From assembly GCF_000412695.1 (NCBI RefSeq), contig NC_021499.1, positions 4,216,001-4,280,000 of the forward strand: DNA of 64,000 nt, given 5' to 3'. The notes beneath the pieces were generated by a model, which saw only the letters and a list, made by a program, of their open reading frames with translations, ran no database searches and was not told where the DNA came from. Positions 48,478 to 57,843 of this stretch are shown in pieces (the first letter of the stretch is position 1; each line of letters starts with the position of its first letter). Both the position numbers and the translations under genes were made by a program. Origin of the DNA: Pseudomonas resinovorans NBRC 106553 (lineage in GTDB: Bacteria; Pseudomonadota; Gammaproteobacteria; Pseudomonadales; Pseudomonadaceae).

Positions 48478-49797
48478 ATGGCTAACCCACAACAACCGCA
48501 ATCGGCGCTCCGCACCTTCTTCGTCTCCGGCATGGGCACCGCGCTGGAGTTCTACGACTTCGTCATCTACGGGGTGGCCGCCGCCCTGGTCTTCCCCCAG
48601 GTGTTCTTCCCCGACCTCGATCGCCTCACCGCCACCCTGGTGGCCTTCGCCGCCTTCGGCGCCGGCTTCTTCGCCCGCCCCCTGGGCGGCATGGTGTTCG
48701 GCCACCTGGGCGACAAGGCCGGGCGGCAGAAGGCCCTGGTCATCACCCTGCTGCTGATGGGCTTCTCCACCCTGGCCATCGGCTGCCTGCCGAGCCACGC
48801 CAGCATCGGCGTAGCCGCGCCCATCCTGCTGGTGCTGCTGCGCCTGGTGCAGGGCTTTGCCGCCGGCGGCGAATGGGGCGGCGCGGCGCTGTTCGGCATC
48901 GAGTCGGCACCGCCCGGCAAGCGCGGCCTGTGGGGCAGCTTCACCAGCATGGGCATCGGCATTGGCGGCATCCTGGGTTCGGCGGTGTTCGCCATCGTCA
49001 GCACCGCGTACGACGACAACCTCGCCGACTTCGCCTGGCGCATCCCCTTCTGGCTGGGTGGCGTGCTGGTGCTGATCGGCCTTTATGCACGCCTGGCCAA
49101 CCCCGCCACCAAGCCCCTGCAACCCCGTGAAAGCACCCGCCTGCCCCTGGTCGCCGCGCTGCGTTCGCGCCCCCGGCAGATGCTGCTGTGCACCGGCATC
49201 GCCTTCGGCTACGTGACCATCGCCTACATCGGCAGCACCTTCTTCCTGGCCTACGCCACCCAGGTGGGCTATGGCAGCACCGAGGCCCTGCTATTCGACG
49301 TGTCGCTGTCCATCGCCATCGTCATCAGCGCGCCAATGTTCGCCGCCCTCTCCGACCGCATCGGCCGGCGCCGGGTGATGATCCTGGGCTCGGTGCTGAT
49401 GGCCGCCGGCTTCTTCGTCTTCTTCGCCCTGGTGGGCCGCCACAGCCTGGCCGTGGCCTGCGCCGCCTACGTGGTGGTGGGCGCCCTGATGGGCGCGACC
49501 CAGGGCCCCATCCCGGCCTTCCTCGCCGAACAGTTCCCGCGCCACATGCGCTACTCCGGCATGTCCGCCGCCTACCAGATAGGCGCGGCCTTCGGCGGCG
49601 GCACCGCCTCCAGCCTGGCCACCGCCATCCTCATCAGCACCGGCAGCCCCTATGGCGTAGCCGCCTACGGCGCGGCGGCCCTGGCCCTGGTGGCGCTGTG
49701 TTCGTACCTGCTGAAGGAGACGGCGCACCTCAGCATGGAGGCGTTGGATGCGGAGGTGGGAGTCGAAGGAAGCGTAGGGATGGCGAGGTCGGTTTGA
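48478..49797 (+). CDS. MFS transporter, metabolite:H+ symporter (MHS) family
   Basis: This 439-residue importer has twelve membrane segments and the MHS signatures GTALEFYDFVIYG, FGHLGDKAGRQKAL and LVQGFAAGGEWGGAAL. It belongs with ShiA, ProP and citrate/dicarboxylate symporters. It probably imports the compound degraded by the two hydrolases upstream, or its products. It is the last gene of the unit and ends at a strong bidirectional terminator. Confidence 0.92.
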   Translation: MANPQQPQSALRTFFVSGMGTALEFYDFVIYGVAAALVFPQVFFPDLDRLTATLVAFAAFGAGFFARPLGGMVFGHLGDKAGRQKALVITLLLMGFSTLAIGCLPSHASIGVAAPILLVLLRLVQGFAAGGEWGGAALFGIESAPPGKRGLWGSFTSMGIGIGGILGSAVFAIVSTAYDDNLADFAWRIPFWLGGVLVLIGLYARLANPATKPLQPRESTRLPLVAALRSRPRQMLLCTGIAFGYVTIAYIGSTFFLAYATQVGYGSTEALLFDVSLSIAIVISAPMFAALSDRIGRRRVMILGSVLMAAGFFVFFALVGRHSLAVACAAYVVVGALMGATQGPIPAFLAEQFPRHMRYSGMSAAYQIGAAFGGGTASSLATAILISTGSPYGVAAYGAAALALVALCSYLLKETAHLSMEALDAEVGVEGSVGMARSV

Positions 49798-55323: not shown

Positions 55324-55569
55324 AACCATGGAAAGACGGAAAAGGGGGGAGATTTATTTTTACTCCAGTTTCCACTTCTGGACGATAGCAGCCAATTGCG
55401 AGCGGCAGAGATCCGCTGGAAGCAGCTTATGCGCAATGCATACGGACTGCGGGCTACCAACGCCATAGCATCGCCCGCACGGCTATTGCCTACAGAAATT
55501 TCTGATCATTTATCTCCCTCCCTACAGAGAAATTTCCCACACCCCATTAGCCTTGAGGCCCTACGCGTG
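55324..55569. other. Intergenic/decayed DNA
   Basis: This stretch follows the membrane-protein pseudogene. A plus-strand frame gives AAEIRWKQLMRNAYGL, which looks protein-like, but it has no start site and no known family. The last part is AT-richer (AGAAATTTCTGATCATTTAT). I find no gene here. Confidence 0.4.
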
Positions 55570-55859
55570 CCCTGGCTAGTGTCCCTCCCCGTCACGGTCA
55601 ATTCCGTGACCGGGTTTGACAGCCCGCATACGTTGGCGCGATTGCGCCGCAAGGTGCATGCGAAAGACGGCGAATGTCTTTTGCAGGCATCGGCACGCAT
55701 GCAGCTTTAAAGGCTGCACTGCTTTATGGCAGGTCGCGCGGGGAGGTCCTCGTGGCCTGCCGGCGCCAACGTACCGGTCTGTCAACCCCGCGTGACTCTG
55801 CCACCCTTCGATTGACAGCGAATGGCGGCAGCTCCTCAACCTTACGTTGGAGCTCCACC
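55570..55859 (+). ncRNA. Structured leader upstream of the BRO-like gene
   Basis: The 290 bp before the BRO-like ATG carry several inverted repeats. GTCACGG-TCAATT-CCGTGAC lies at 55591-55610 and GCAGC...GCTGC at 55701-55717. GGCAGG...CCTGCC at 55728-55761 encloses GAGG-T-CCTC. No convincing protein is encoded. I recall similar leaders in front of BRO-type genes in other Pseudomonas, so a conserved RNA or operator region is possible. Whether it is transcribed separately is unknown. Confidence 0.45.
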
Positions 55860-56327
55860 ATGCACGATGCATATACCCCTGTCGTTTTCTATCACCACCA
55901 CCAACGCCTGCGCGCCGTGATGGTCGACAACCAGCCCTGGTTCGTCGCCCATGACTTTGCACGGCTGATCGGGCTTCCCGATGCCCTCCCCTTGCTCCAG
56001 GCCCTGGAGCCTCACGAACAGCAAACCCTCTGTCTTGGCTACACCCACGACTTCCATGAAGAGATCACCGCCATCAGCGATATCGGCGCCTACCGGGCGC
56101 TGTTCCAGTTCGGCGGGCCTGAGCATGAGGCTGTCGGCCGCTGGCTCAGTGCGGTGCTGGTGCCGACGCTGCATGACTACCACCGGGTGCCTGATGCGGC
56201 GCCGCGTCGTAACGAGCTGAGCTACGAAGGTCGGCGGATTGGTGTGGTGCGTTGGCAGGGTGAGGTGTGGGTGGCCTGGCGGGATTTGCCGGCCTTTATG
56301 GTTAGCGGCAAGGAGGTGTCGGTATGA
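55860..56327 (+). CDS. BRO-N domain (prophage antirepressor-like) protein
   Basis: This 155-residue protein carries a BRO-N fold: VVFYHHHQRLRAVMVDNQPW, FVAHDFARLIGLPDAL and ITAISDIGAYRALFQ, followed by EAVGRWLSAVLVPTLHDY. BRO-N domains occur in phage antirepressors and bind DNA. The start at 55860 is preceded by a GGAG. It overlaps the next small gene by 4 bases. There are no other phage genes around it, so it is an isolated module rather than a prophage. Confidence 0.85.
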   Translation: MHDAYTPVVFYHHHQRLRAVMVDNQPWFVAHDFARLIGLPDALPLLQALEPHEQQTLCLGYTHDFHEEITAISDIGAYRALFQFGGPEHEAVGRWLSAVLVPTLHDYHRVPDAAPRRNELSYEGRRIGVVRWQGEVWVAWRDLPAFMVSGKEVSV

Positions 56328-56569
56328 GCGACGACCTTGATGAGCGGCGGTTGTGGGAGCTGGTGAATCGGCTGGATTCGCGGCTGAACACGGTACGGGT
56401 GCTGGCTGAAGTCCTCCTGGACAATGCGGCTATGCGAGAGGGGATTCCCGGGCCCTATCTGGACAACGTCAAGGAGAGTGCGTTGATGGAGGCCTTGATC
56501 TATTTGTCCCGGAGCAACGAGAAGGATTTCTTGCGGTTGGCGAAGATGCAGCAATTGCCGTTGGTGTGA
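56324..56569 (+). CDS. Small partner protein of the BRO-like gene, unknown function
   Basis: This 81-residue acidic protein (MSDDLDERRLWELVNRLDSR at the start, then VRVLAEVLLDNAAM) is predicted to be all helical. I know no function. It overlaps the BRO-like gene in ATGA and both end at the terminator at 56579, so they form a two-gene operon. I recall the same pairing elsewhere in Pseudomonas. Confidence 0.75.
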   Translation: MSDDLDERRLWELVNRLDSRLNTVRVLAEVLLDNAAMREGIPGPYLDNVKESALMEALIYLSRSNEKDFLRLAKMQQLPLV

Positions 56570-56578
56570 GGTGAGGTG

Positions 56579-56617
56579 GGCCCCTCTTCCGGGGTGGGAG
56601 AGGGGCCTTTGTTTTGT
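56579..56617 (+). terminator. Rho-independent terminator of the BRO module
   Basis: GGCCCCTCT pairs with AGAGGGGCC around an 11-base loop and is followed by TTTGTTTTGTT, 10 bases after the stop codon. Confidence 0.88.
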
Positions 56618-56620
56618 TGG

Positions 56621-56993
56621 GGCAACGGGGTTGCCCTTGGCGATTGAAATCGCCCCTACAGGGGTGGGTGCGGCGCGGGGGCGATCGCGAATGAATTCGC
56701 TCCTACAGGAGAGAGCGCGTGCCGGGTGAGGGGGCAACGGGGTTGCCCTTGGCGATTGAAATCGCCCCTACAGGGGTGGTGCGGCGCGGGGGCGATCGCG
56801 AATGAATTCGCTCTTACAGGAGAGCGCGCGTGTCGGGTTAGGGGGCAACGGGTTGCCCTTGGCGATTGAAATCGCCCCTACAGGGGTGGCGCGGCGCGGG
56901 GGTGATCGCGAATGAATTCGCTCCTACAGGAGAGACCGCGTGCCGGGTAAGCGGGCAACGGGGTTGCCCTTGGCGAATGAATTCGCCCCCACA
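56621..56993. repeat. Tandem array of 111-bp palindromic repeats, 3.4 copies
   Basis: Units start with GGCAACGGG at 56621, 56733, 56844 and 56954, giving periods of 112, 111 and 110 bp. Each full unit holds two palindromes: GCGATTGAAATCGC followed by CCCCTACAGGGG, and GCGAATGAATTCGC followed by CTCCTACAGGAG. The fourth unit is a hybrid, joining the start of the first palindrome to the second (GGCGAATGAATTCGCC). The array lies between convergent genes and ends at the amidase stop codon. Confidence 0.92.
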
Positions 56994-56997
56994 GGAA

Positions 56998-57843
56998 TCA
57001 GGCCAGCAAGCCCGCCTCGCCATACAGGGTTGGTCGGCGGTCCTGGTGGAGGTGGTTGTGGCGGCTGATGCGTTTGTTGTGCGCGTCCGCCAGGTTCAGG
57101 GTGGCGAGCAGTATCTGCTCGCCGCCCTCCTCTGCCGGGCCGGCGCGAGGGAAGCCGTCGGCGTCGACTATCACCGAGCCCTGTACCCAATTCACGCCGC
57201 GCTCATTACCGTGCCGGTCGCAGGCGGCGACGAACAGGCGGTTGACCGAGGCGTTGGCTTGCACCCGCACCACTTCCGCCGGGCGCTCGTGGTCCGGGCG
57301 CGGGCTCCAGGGCCAGTTCACCGGGGCGCAGAGCAGCTCGGCGCCGGCCAGGGCCGGCAGGCGCACCCATTCGGGGAACTCCAGGTCGTAGCAGATCATC
57401 ACCGCGATCCGGCCGAAGGCCGTTTCAACCACCGGCGGCGCTTCGTCGCCGGCGGTGAAGATGAGGTTCTCACCATCCCACAGGTGCGCCTTGCGGTAGA
57501 CCGCCCGCACGCCGCTGGCATCGATCAGCGCCGCGCTGTTGGCCACCCGCTCGCCCTCCAGCCGCTCGCAGAAGCCGCCCACGATGACAATGCCCAGCTC
57601 CCGCGCCAGCCCTTGCCAGAGCTGGAGCGTCGGGCCGTCCTGGGTTTCGGCCAGCGCCAGGGCTTCGGCGCGGTCATGGAAGACGTAGCCGCTCTGCGCC
57701 AGTTCGGGGAGCACGACCACCTGGGCGCCGCGCAGTGCGGCGCTGCGGATCGCGCGTTCACTGACACGCCGGTTGTGGGCCGGATCACCCACGCTGGGCG
57801 CCAACTGGCAGCAGGCCACGGTGACGGGTTTGGAGGCGTTCAT
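56998..57843 (-). CDS. Carbon-nitrogen hydrolase (nitrilase superfamily amidase)
   Basis: This 281-residue enzyme has the Glu-Lys-Cys triad of the nitrilase superfamily: VVLPELAQSGYVF, VYRKAHLWDGE and VMICYDLEFPEWVR. It resembles aliphatic amidase or N-carbamoyl amine hydrolases; the substrate is not known. The ATG at 57843 (MNASKPVTVACCQLAPS) is preferred over 57864. It lies 17 bp after the permease gene on the same strand, so substrate uptake and hydrolysis are probably linked. Confidence 0.9.
   Translation of the reverse strand: MNASKPVTVACCQLAPSVGDPAHNRRVSERAIRSAALRGAQVVVLPELAQSGYVFHDRAEALALAETQDGPTLQLWQGLARELGIVIVGGFCERLEGERVANSAALIDASGVRAVYRKAHLWDGENLIFTAGDEAPPVVETAFGRIAVMICYDLEFPEWVRLPALAGAELLCAPVNWPWSPRPDHERPAEVVRVQANASVNRLFVAACDRHGNERGVNWVQGSVIVDADGFPRAGPAEEGGEQILLATLNLADAHNKRISRHNHLHQDRRPTLYGEAGLLA

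What the first reader, a model, noticed from the sequence alone, without database searches (positions are those of the whole stretch)
55570..56617. Compact module: structured leader, BRO-N protein and coupled 81-residue partner
Seen: 290 bp with at least three strong inverted repeats, then two genes overlapping by 4 bases and a strong terminator, with no phage genes around. The partner has no known function. Inference: a stand-alone regulatory or conflict module (antirepressor-like DNA binder plus small acidic protein) under control of a structured RNA or palindromic operator. The leader recalls the immunity-RNA regions of P4-like elements, but I cannot show homology. This is my best candidate for an undescribed system in the window.
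Basis: partly seen in the sequence, partly recalled or inferred. Interest (0 to 1): 0.7.

Follow-up and report, generated by a model that had tools for sequence, protein, structure and literature searches.

The report
Chromosomal C4-RNA gate over BRO-N pair
This is a bacterial copy of the antisense-RNA switch of phage P1, here placed over a small DNA-binding-type protein and a coupled partner; the same chromosome holds 18 such switches, many with pairing codes of their own, which looks like a large family of insulated RNA locks on little-studied genes.

Summary
Rfam identifies it as the C4 antisense RNA (55722-55808, 65.8 bits) plus its a1/b1 target (55576-55630), the immunity RNA of phages P1/P7. 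The layout matches P1 part for part: a1, b1, C4, a2, b2 at the Shine-Dalgarno site, first ORF, second ORF with a 4-base overlap. BRO-N stands where P1 has icd, the 81-residue protein where P1 has ant. Less expected is the scale. This genome has 18 C4 copies, all 18 genomes searched in the genus have 3-25, and the loops mostly match their own neighbouring gene (73 modules of five species: 7-base match to own start site 48/73, to other modules' 39/1026). Within a genome, BRO-N pairs with 90-98% identical proteins have different codes (11 of 11). In some modules BRO-N is replaced by a 21-27-codon ORF while the coupled partner remains. In four other genomes of the family, 62 of 80 DUF6124 matches sit just downstream of a C4. 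Blocking of the start site is well supported by sequence; what the proteins do is unknown.

The parts
55457..56650 (+). whole module: the unit that is homologous among paralogues of this genome
   Evidence: BLASTN against L010, L011, L017, L018, L020: left edge 55456/55457 in four and 55480 in L011; right edge 56651-56715 in four, L017 to 56930 through repeats; L016 aligns only over 55587-55986
55553..55582 (+). probable promoter: -35 TTGAGG (55553-55558), -10 TAGTGT (55577-55582), 18-base spacer
   Evidence: placed by analogy with P1 promoter P1c4, whose -10 box also falls at the start of the c4-a1b1 model; both boxes invariant in six paralogues; the consensus scan found no promoter
55576..55630 (+). 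c4-a1b1 target element, with the a1 box TTGACAG at 55616-55622
   Evidence: Rfam RF03163 50.7 bits; a1 letters identical to the annotated P1 a1
55629..55639 (+). b1 target TACGTTGGCGC
   Evidence: 11 of 11 complementary to the C4 loop; differs among the six aligned paralogues
55722..55808 (+). C4 antisense RNA; b' loop 55763-55773, a' 55779-55785
   Evidence: Rfam RF01695 65.8 bits, full length 1-87; covariation
55812..55818 (+). a2 box TTGACAG
   Evidence: same letters as the annotated P1 a2; complementary to a'
55843..55853 (+). b2 target TACGTTGGAGC, overlapping the Shine-Dalgarno GGAG at 55849-55852
   Evidence: 10 of 11 complementary to the b' loop; loop duplex -16.2 kcal/mol
55860..56327 (+). 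ORF1: 155-residue BRO-N protein, in the place of P1 icd
   Evidence: Pfam PF02498 E 4e-6; PHROGs anti-repressor families; AlphaFold2 model mean pLDDT 82
56324..56569 (+). ORF2: 81-residue partner, coupled by a 4-base overlap, in the place of P1 ant
   Evidence: sequence; same -4 overlap in six of six C4-BRO-N-partner modules of this genome; low-confidence helical-hairpin model, mean pLDDT 65
56578..56608 (+). intrinsic terminator
   Evidence: 14-pair stem followed by a T-rich tail

Best explanation
A P1-type C4 antisense-RNA gate on a chromosomal two-gene unit. One transcript starts at the leader promoter. The C4 segment is cut out (by RNase P in P1; inferred here) and, with its a' and b' loops, pairs with a2 and b2 just upstream of ORF1, covering its Shine-Dalgarno site. 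ORF1 (BRO-N) is then not translated, and ORF2 stays silent because its start overlaps the ORF1 stop (ATGA). The a1/b1 copy in the leader can also bind C4 and probably serves as a built-in sponge or derepressor, as IsrK does in Gifsy-1. Most modules carry a b code of their own, so each can be switched apart from its sisters. Shown by sequence: the parts, their complementarity, covariation, copy number, mostly private codes and retained coupling. Inferred: promoter, processing, repression, trigger. Unknown: what BRO-N and the partner do once released; my leading guess is a phage-related response in which BRO-N acts on DNA or on repressor proteins and the partner is the more essential output.
For: Rfam C4 and c4-a1b1. 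P1 (AF234172) has the same order a1, b1, C4, a2, b2, icd, ant1, with icd/ant1 overlapping by 4 bases, and identical a boxes TTGACAG. In 73 modules of five species (76 fetched; L041, L043, L083 dropped because my loop pattern failed) the loop pairs with the own start region better than with other modules' of the same genome: -15.3 against -11.5 kcal/mol, 0 of 20000 permutations; Watson-Crick run of 7 or more with own b2 48/73 against 39/1026, with own b1 51/73 against 56/1026, with either 65/73. In six paralogous leaders (mean column identity 86%) the stems, a boxes and promoter boxes are conserved while b1, b' and b2 differ. 15 of 76 modules have a first ORF under 60 codons and 14 of these 15 keep a second ORF overlapping by 4 or 8 bases; in L046/L073 the 21-codon ORF reads like the BRO-N start followed by its end, with the partner still coupled. 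Translational coupling through AUGA and control by the upstream RNA were shown by experiment in Gifsy-1 isrK-orf45-anrP (passages of PMC4825925).
Against: No expression or processing data for this organism. Own b2 is the best site within its genome for only 40 of 73 loops and own b1 for only 12 of 73 (chance about 5). Eight of 73 have neither a b1 nor a b2 run of 7. In this genome L012, L014, L019, L021, L023, L024 and L025 show no convincing b2 (runs of 3-6; L012's six look accidental) and L009 only five; five of the first seven have a b1 run of 7 or more. Codes are not strictly unique: 5 of 513 within-genome pairs share 7 or more bases and L032/L039 have the same loop. L150 (G015) has BRO-N and partner but no C4 above the cut-off in 3 kb. 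Other patches of the leader vary too (a hairpin before C4 and the stretch before b2). The consensus promoter scan found nothing.
Confidence: 0.82

Rival explanations
1. The chromosomal C4 RNAs mainly act in trans, on incoming phages' ant mRNAs or on host mRNAs, and pairing with the neighbour is secondary. The 18 copies would then be an RNA immunity bank.
For: Weiss et al. proposed phage or host targets for the Acinetobacter copies (PMC5320573). Of 72 IMG/VR stretches with the C4 core pattern (one contig gave two), two (L181, L186) have a loop sharing 8 bases with the loop of this window, so cross-silencing of a phage is conceivable. Seven modules of this genome show no convincing b2.
Against: The loop matches its own neighbour far more often than other modules; this is not expected if the neighbour were not a target. 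The partner has no match in 50,697 phage records (tblastn, E 1e-3).
Confidence: 0.15
2. RNA-antitoxin module: C4 is a labile antitoxin RNA and ORF1 and/or ORF2 stops growth when C4 is lost, for instance during phage takeover (a type I toxin-antitoxin or abortive-infection logic).
For: Many stand-alone small modules with mostly private codes, small proteins without known domains, and surroundings of ordinary metabolic genes at the five places looked at look like such systems. P1 icd is annotated as an inhibitor of cell division. IsrK overexpression affects growth through AnrP and AntQ (and the review passages).
Against: No toxicity data. PADLOC gives only a weak hit for BRO-N (PDC-M05B, E 0.0024) and none for the partner. 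BRO-N is an antirepressor-type domain, not a known toxin (recalled).
Confidence: 0.3
3. Decaying prophage immunity regions without present function.
For: The RNA is of phage type; an orphan partner copy has lost the 5' half of its module (L148); two BRO-N frames look broken (L025 of this genome, matched in two frames; G008 L077).
Against: Fifty of 76 modules have a BRO-N-like ORF of 110 residues or more by my filter (L025 among them), stems keep compensating bases, loops match their own sites, and shrunken first ORFs keep start and coupling. No phage gene by Pfam among the scanned neighbours of five of 18 copies. BRO-N is 25-30% identical to the 20 of 115 phage records listed, and under 60% in all 115.
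Confidence: 0.12
4. The palindromes act as DNA operators for BRO-N rather than as RNA.
For: BRO-N is a DNA-binding-type domain (recalled) and the leader is rich in inverted repeats.
Against: The stems covary as RNA pairs including G-U, match the C4 model over its full length, and the long-range b'-b1 and b'-b2 complementarity is explained at RNA level.
Confidence: 0.04

Closest known systems
c4-icd-ant (immI) of phages P1 and P7, C4 antisense RNA (Rfam RF01695, RF03163)
   Same: RNA family, order of a1, b1, C4, a2, b2, identical a boxes (P1), b2 at the start site of the first ORF, and a 4-base overlap between the two ORFs
   Different: Chromosomal, not in a phage; 18 copies in one genome; BRO-N in the place of icd and an 81-residue protein without known family in the place of ant; no C1 repressor system was looked for
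C4-like 'Group 1' sRNAs of Acinetobacter baumannii AB5075 (PMC5320573; abstract, sections 16-17 and passages read)
   Same: Many C4 RNAs (21, 15 full length) in one chromosome, variable in the target-specificity loop, expressed and apparently processed
   Different: There the targets were left open in what I read; here the loop mostly matches the gene just downstream, with BRO-N/partner or DUF6124-type cargo
isrK-orf45-anrP of Gifsy-1 (PMC4825925; passages read)
   Same: A leader RNA controls a short ORF whose stop overlaps the start of an antirepressor gene (AUGA); coupling shown there by experiment
   Different: The isrK model scores below its Rfam cut-off here (31.8 against 50 bits); in a prophage
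Salmonella Gifsy antirepressors acting in trans (PMC3121763; seen only in a search listing with the start of its abstract)
   Same: Antirepressors that can act across elements
   Different: Action of the BRO-N protein here is untested

Membership tests
C4 antisense RNA (RF01695) | Sequence-structure match above the curated score | tested here: met
   65.8 bits against 45, model 1-87
C4 antisense RNA (RF01695) | a1/b1 target upstream (RF03163) | tested here: met
   50.7 bits against 46.7; b1 11/11 complementary. Among the other 17 copies of this genome only L016 reaches this cut-off
C4 antisense RNA (RF01695) | a2/b2 target covering the start site of the next ORF | tested here: met
   a2 TTGACAG identical to P1, b2 10/11 over GGAG
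C4 antisense RNA (RF01695) | Cut from a longer transcript by RNase P | not testable with these tools
   Stated for P1/P7 and suggested for Acinetobacter (PMC5320573); no RNA data here
P1-type c4-icd-ant operon | Two coupled ORFs, the second an antirepressor | tested here: inconclusive
   Coupling met (4-base overlap); but the antirepressor-type domain is in ORF1, and ORF2 has no known domain
BRO-N domain protein | Pfam Bro-N above cut-off | tested here: met
   27.7 bits against 25.6
Phage antirepressor (function) | Relieves a phage repressor | not testable with these tools
   Only family resemblance (PHROGs)
isrK (RF01394) | Score above curated cut-off | tested here: not met
   31.8 against 50 bits
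P4-type immunity RNA | Homology to the P4 immunity region | not tested
   No P4 sequence was compared
Type I toxin-antitoxin | RNA antitoxin and growth-inhibiting protein | not testable with these tools
   The antisense part fits; toxicity unknown

The most novel reading that the evidence does not exclude
Genomes of this Pseudomonas family carry a bank of up to 36 C4-RNA locks, mostly with their own codes, on small effector genes (BRO-N plus partner, DUF6124, DUF3077 and others). The lock code diversifies faster than the protein so that modules stay insulated from each other, and first ORFs can shrink to mere coupling leaders. The bank would act as a multi-channel alarm or immunity system against phages and mobile elements, and would give the first regulatory context for the orphan families DUF6124 and DUF3077.
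Probability: 0.35. Interest if true: 0.85.

Novelty: new variant of a known kind. Interest (0 to 1): 0.62.

Why it matters
C4 is best known as the immunity RNA of single phages. A chromosome with 18 copies, many of which match their own neighbour by 7-11 bases at loop, b1 and b2, is a natural set of nearly orthogonal antisense switches. It gives a testable prediction for each module, and suggests where to look for the targets of the Acinetobacter copies, which were left open. It also places most DUF6124 matches in four genomes, a family not mentioned in any paper of the searched library, under a known kind of RNA control.

Tried and rejected
Considered and dropped: (1) P4-type immunity RNA: the Rfam match is C4; P4 itself was not compared. 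(2) Code tied to genomic site, with proteins homogenised: tested by BLASTN (E 1e-30, over 400 bases) of the flanks of 20 stretches of about 12 kb. Only one same-code pair shared a flank (L089/L091, right); three pairs with different codes shared flanks between species (L086/L100 right, L094/L102 both flanks in opposite orientation, L089/L099 right), so the code is not simply site-bound. Other matches were overlapping neighbours or, as I read them, repeats or insertion sequences. (3) Partner homologous to DUF6124/DUF3077: not supported by profile comparison (hhalign probability under 1%); the 93-102-residue proteins of G028 (with two of G082) against DUF6124 gave E 0.0065, probability 6%. (4) Known fold for the partner: no significant match (best E 1.2), low-confidence model. 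(5) BRO-N in PDB: no sequence match that I trust (armadillo hits look spurious); Foldseek best is the N-terminal domain of a granulovirus protein, 4ye7, E 0.09, probability 0.99. (6) Known defence family: PADLOC weak for BRO-N, none for the partner. (7) Partner in phages: none of 50,697 records at E 1e-3, although phrog_16312 gives E 4e-4. (8) The permutation test in the low-GC genome G028 was weaker (12 of 15 modules usable; -10.5 against -8.5, 140 of 20000). (9) A tree of 34 BRO-N proteins: my filter left out many modules, so I used pairwise identities of the wider set instead. (10) 72 IMG/VR stretches: 55 of 72 have a run of 7 or more with the sequence downstream, but without a shuffled control, so I do not lean on it.

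Literature: ten searches. 'C4 antisense RNA' is in 17 papers, 15 listed; DUF6124 in none, DUF3077 in one. None of the listed titles and abstract starts describes C4 control of Pseudomonas BRO-N or DUF6124 genes; subscription journals are mostly not covered.

Full report
What is there. The leader, the two overlapping genes and the terminator are at the stated place. Rfam identifies the leader: the c4-a1b1 target element at 55576-55630 (50.7 bits, cut-off 46.7) and the C4 antisense RNA at 55722-55808 (65.8 bits, cut-off 45). ORF1 is a Bro-N protein that also matches anti-repressor families in PHROGs. ORF2 has no Pfam family and only a weak match to phrog_16312 of unknown function. Of ten neighbouring proteins, eight gave Fic, a transglycosylase, an IS3-type element (two proteins), a nitrilase-type hydrolase, a permease, LysR and a metallo-hydrolase; two had no match. 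Ten of 19 ORFs of 200 codons or more listed around four other copies (L086, L092, L095, L101) gave no phage family either; the other 13 copies were not checked.

Comparison with P1. In the P1 record AF234172 the annotated order is promoter, a1, b1, C4, a2, b2, icd, ant1; icd ends at 48691 and ant1 starts at 48688, a 4-base overlap. Rfam finds C4 and c4-a1b1 there too. The window has the same order. Its a1 (55616-55622) and a2 (55812-55818) are TTGACAG, letter for letter those of P1. Its b boxes differ from P1: TACGTTGG in place of GTTAGTG. The b' loop GCGCCAACGTA (55763-55773) is 11/11 complementary to b1 (55629-55639) and 10/11 to b2 (55843-55853), and b2 covers the Shine-Dalgarno GGAG. The b2 box starts 17 bases before the start codon here and 18 in P1 (from the coordinates).

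Copies in this genome. G000 holds 18 C4 matches over the cut-off. Fourteen of the 18 are followed by a BRO-N relative (tblastn); L009, L013 (two modules) and L015 are followed by other small proteins without a Pfam family above cut-off in the three tested. Six carry the partner in the same -4 overlap: L022 (the window), L017, L011, L010, L018, L020. A seventh partner gene (L148) follows a 3' remnant of BRO-N; the 5' half of the module is gone. In L025 the BRO-N match lies in two frames. Of 25 predicted C4 pairs 13 have two-sided compensatory changes over the 18 copies. The c4-a1b1 model reaches its cut-off in only two of the 18, the window and L016, although most others have a b1-like match. 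Among six paralogous leaders (mean column identity 86%) the promoter boxes, the a boxes and the stems are conserved and b1, b' and b2 differ; a hairpin before C4 and the stretch before b2 also vary. The shared unit begins at 55456/55457 in four comparisons and 55480 in one.

Copies elsewhere. All 18 genomes searched in the genus, this one included, have 3 to 25 C4 RNAs. In the family 78 of 119 genomes and 17 of 19 genera have one; the largest count seen was 36 in G045. Fourteen control genomes had none. The partner is nearly confined to the genus: 16 of 148 family genomes, 13 of them among the 18 of this genus and the other three with E no better than 2.6e-7. The named records with the partner in the GTDB collection are Pseudomonas alcaligenes MRY13-0052 (five loci) and Pseudomonas sp. 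BN417 (one); that this points to the otitidis/resinovorans neighbourhood is recalled and inferred.

Private codes. I fetched 58 further modules from four species: 19 of 25 in G002, 14 of 21 in G017, 13 of 16 in G013, 12 of 16 in G008, those whose places were listed. With the 18 of this genome that is 76; 73 were usable (L041, L043, L083 dropped: loop pattern not found). Own loop against own start region averages -15.3 kcal/mol, against permuted partners within a genome -11.5; 0 of 20000 permutations reached the own value. For b1 the figures are -15.5 and -13.5, again 0 of 20000. A Watson-Crick run of 7 or more with own b2 is found in 48/73, with other modules of the same genome in 39/1026; with own b1 51/73 against 56/1026; 65/73 have at least one. 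Against the reading: own b2 is the best site within its genome for only 40 of 73 and own b1 for 12 of 73 (chance about 5), eight have neither, and in this genome L012, L014, L019, L021 and L023-L025 show no convincing b2 and L009 a run of only five.

Code and protein are uncoupled. Among BRO-N modules, 22 within-genome pairs have proteins at least 80% identical, and one of the 22 (L045/L051) shares a loop stretch of 7 or more bases; of the 11 pairs at 90% or more none does. Meanwhile 13 between-species pairs share 10 or 11 loop bases, 11 of them with proteins 39-70% identical and two with 87-91%. Over all 73 loops, 5 of 513 within-genome pairs and 64 of 2115 between-genome pairs share 7 or more bases; shuffling genome labels gave 5 or fewer in 21 of 20000 (expected 13.5). 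Part of this depletion could come from common descent of modules between species. Shared sites do not explain it: one same-code pair shares a flank, while three pairs with different codes do. I read this as duplication and movement of modules with pressure to keep codes distinct within a genome; the cause is inferred.

Which gene is the output. In 72 of 76 modules a first ORF (ATG, Shine-Dalgarno-like site, 12 codons or more) starts 37-76 bases after C4, as my script required; 15 of these are under 60 codons, and 14 of the 15 have a second ORF overlapping by 4 or 8 bases; in two of the 14 (L021, L041) the second ORF is BRO-N itself. In L046 and L073 the first ORF is 21 codons that read like the start and end of BRO-N, and the partner follows with ATGA; L080 (27 codons) and L083 (22 codons, not clearly BRO-N) also lead into the partner. 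So BRO-N can be missing while the gate and the coupled partner stay. This is the best evidence that ORF2 matters. Coupling of this kind was shown in Gifsy-1 for orf45-anrP (passages of PMC4825925).

Other cargo. In G082 19 of 24 C4s are followed by a DUF6124 match, and DUF3077 matches also occur there. In G082, G089, G067 and G045 together 62 of 80 DUF6124 matches (74 of the 80 above the Pfam cut-off) lie within 400 bases downstream of a C4 on the same strand, using 62 of 95 C4s; about 0.07 would be expected by chance. I chose these four from one genus of the family because they had many C4s, so the fraction may be lower elsewhere. In G082 the own-pairing test also holds (19 of 24 usable; -15.4 against -10.4; 0 of 20000). 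In the low-GC genome G028 four C4 RNAs precede vgrG-like ORFs (L108, L111, L112, L116); L108 was checked by family search, the others resemble it by eye.

Structures. The BRO-N model is good in its first 110 residues (mean pLDDT 82.4 overall), and its C-terminal part looks like a half repeat of the same strand-strand-helix (my reading). Foldseek found nothing at E 0.001; the best hit is 4ye7 (E 0.09). The partner model is a helical hairpin of low confidence (64.7) without a significant match.

Known or new. The RNA and its way of working are known from P1/P7; Weinberg et al. 2010 list it for Proteobacteria and phages (passages of PMC2864571). Many C4-like sRNAs in one chromosome are known from Acinetobacter baumannii (PMC5320573: abstract, two sections and passages read), whose authors left the targets open in what I read. 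I found no paper in the searched library on C4 control of BRO-N/partner or DUF6124 genes in Pseudomonas. I therefore call it a new variant of a known kind.

Noticed in passing
G082, G089, G067, G045 (loci L118-L141 for G082): 62 of 80 DUF6124 matches lie within 400 bases downstream of a C4 RNA; DUF3077 matches in G082 also occur there. This may matter more than the window itself.
   Followed up: partly
L108, L111, L112, L116 (genome G028): C4 RNAs 46-54 bases upstream of vgrG-like ORFs in a low-GC genome with 15 C4 copies.
   Followed up: partly
L050/L052 (G017) and L078/L079 (G008): Two C4 RNAs in tandem about 280 bases apart in front of one BRO-N gene.
   Followed up: no
L012, L014, L019, L021, L023, L024, L025: Modules in which the loop has no convincing match at the start site; five of the seven match the upstream leader (b1) by 7 or more bases. 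Their way of control is unexplained.
   Followed up: partly
L149, L152: Partner-family genes outside C4 modules; by eye the upstream stretch looks like a divergent HTH gene with palindromes (no C4 in L149).
   Followed up: no
L150 (G015): BRO-N plus partner without a C4 above the cut-off in 3 kb.
   Followed up: no
window 55799-55835 and the same place in paralogues: The C4 3' end (TGCCACC) has a complementary GGTGGC-like stretch just downstream in many modules, a possible alternative hairpin that would compete with C4 folding (by eye).
   Followed up: no
L181, L186: Two viral contigs carry C4 loops sharing 8 bases with the loop of this window, so cross-immunity is conceivable.
   Followed up: no
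window 56615-57000: Tandem REP-like repeats directly behind the terminator, with similar stretches behind L011, L017, L018 and L020.
   Followed up: no
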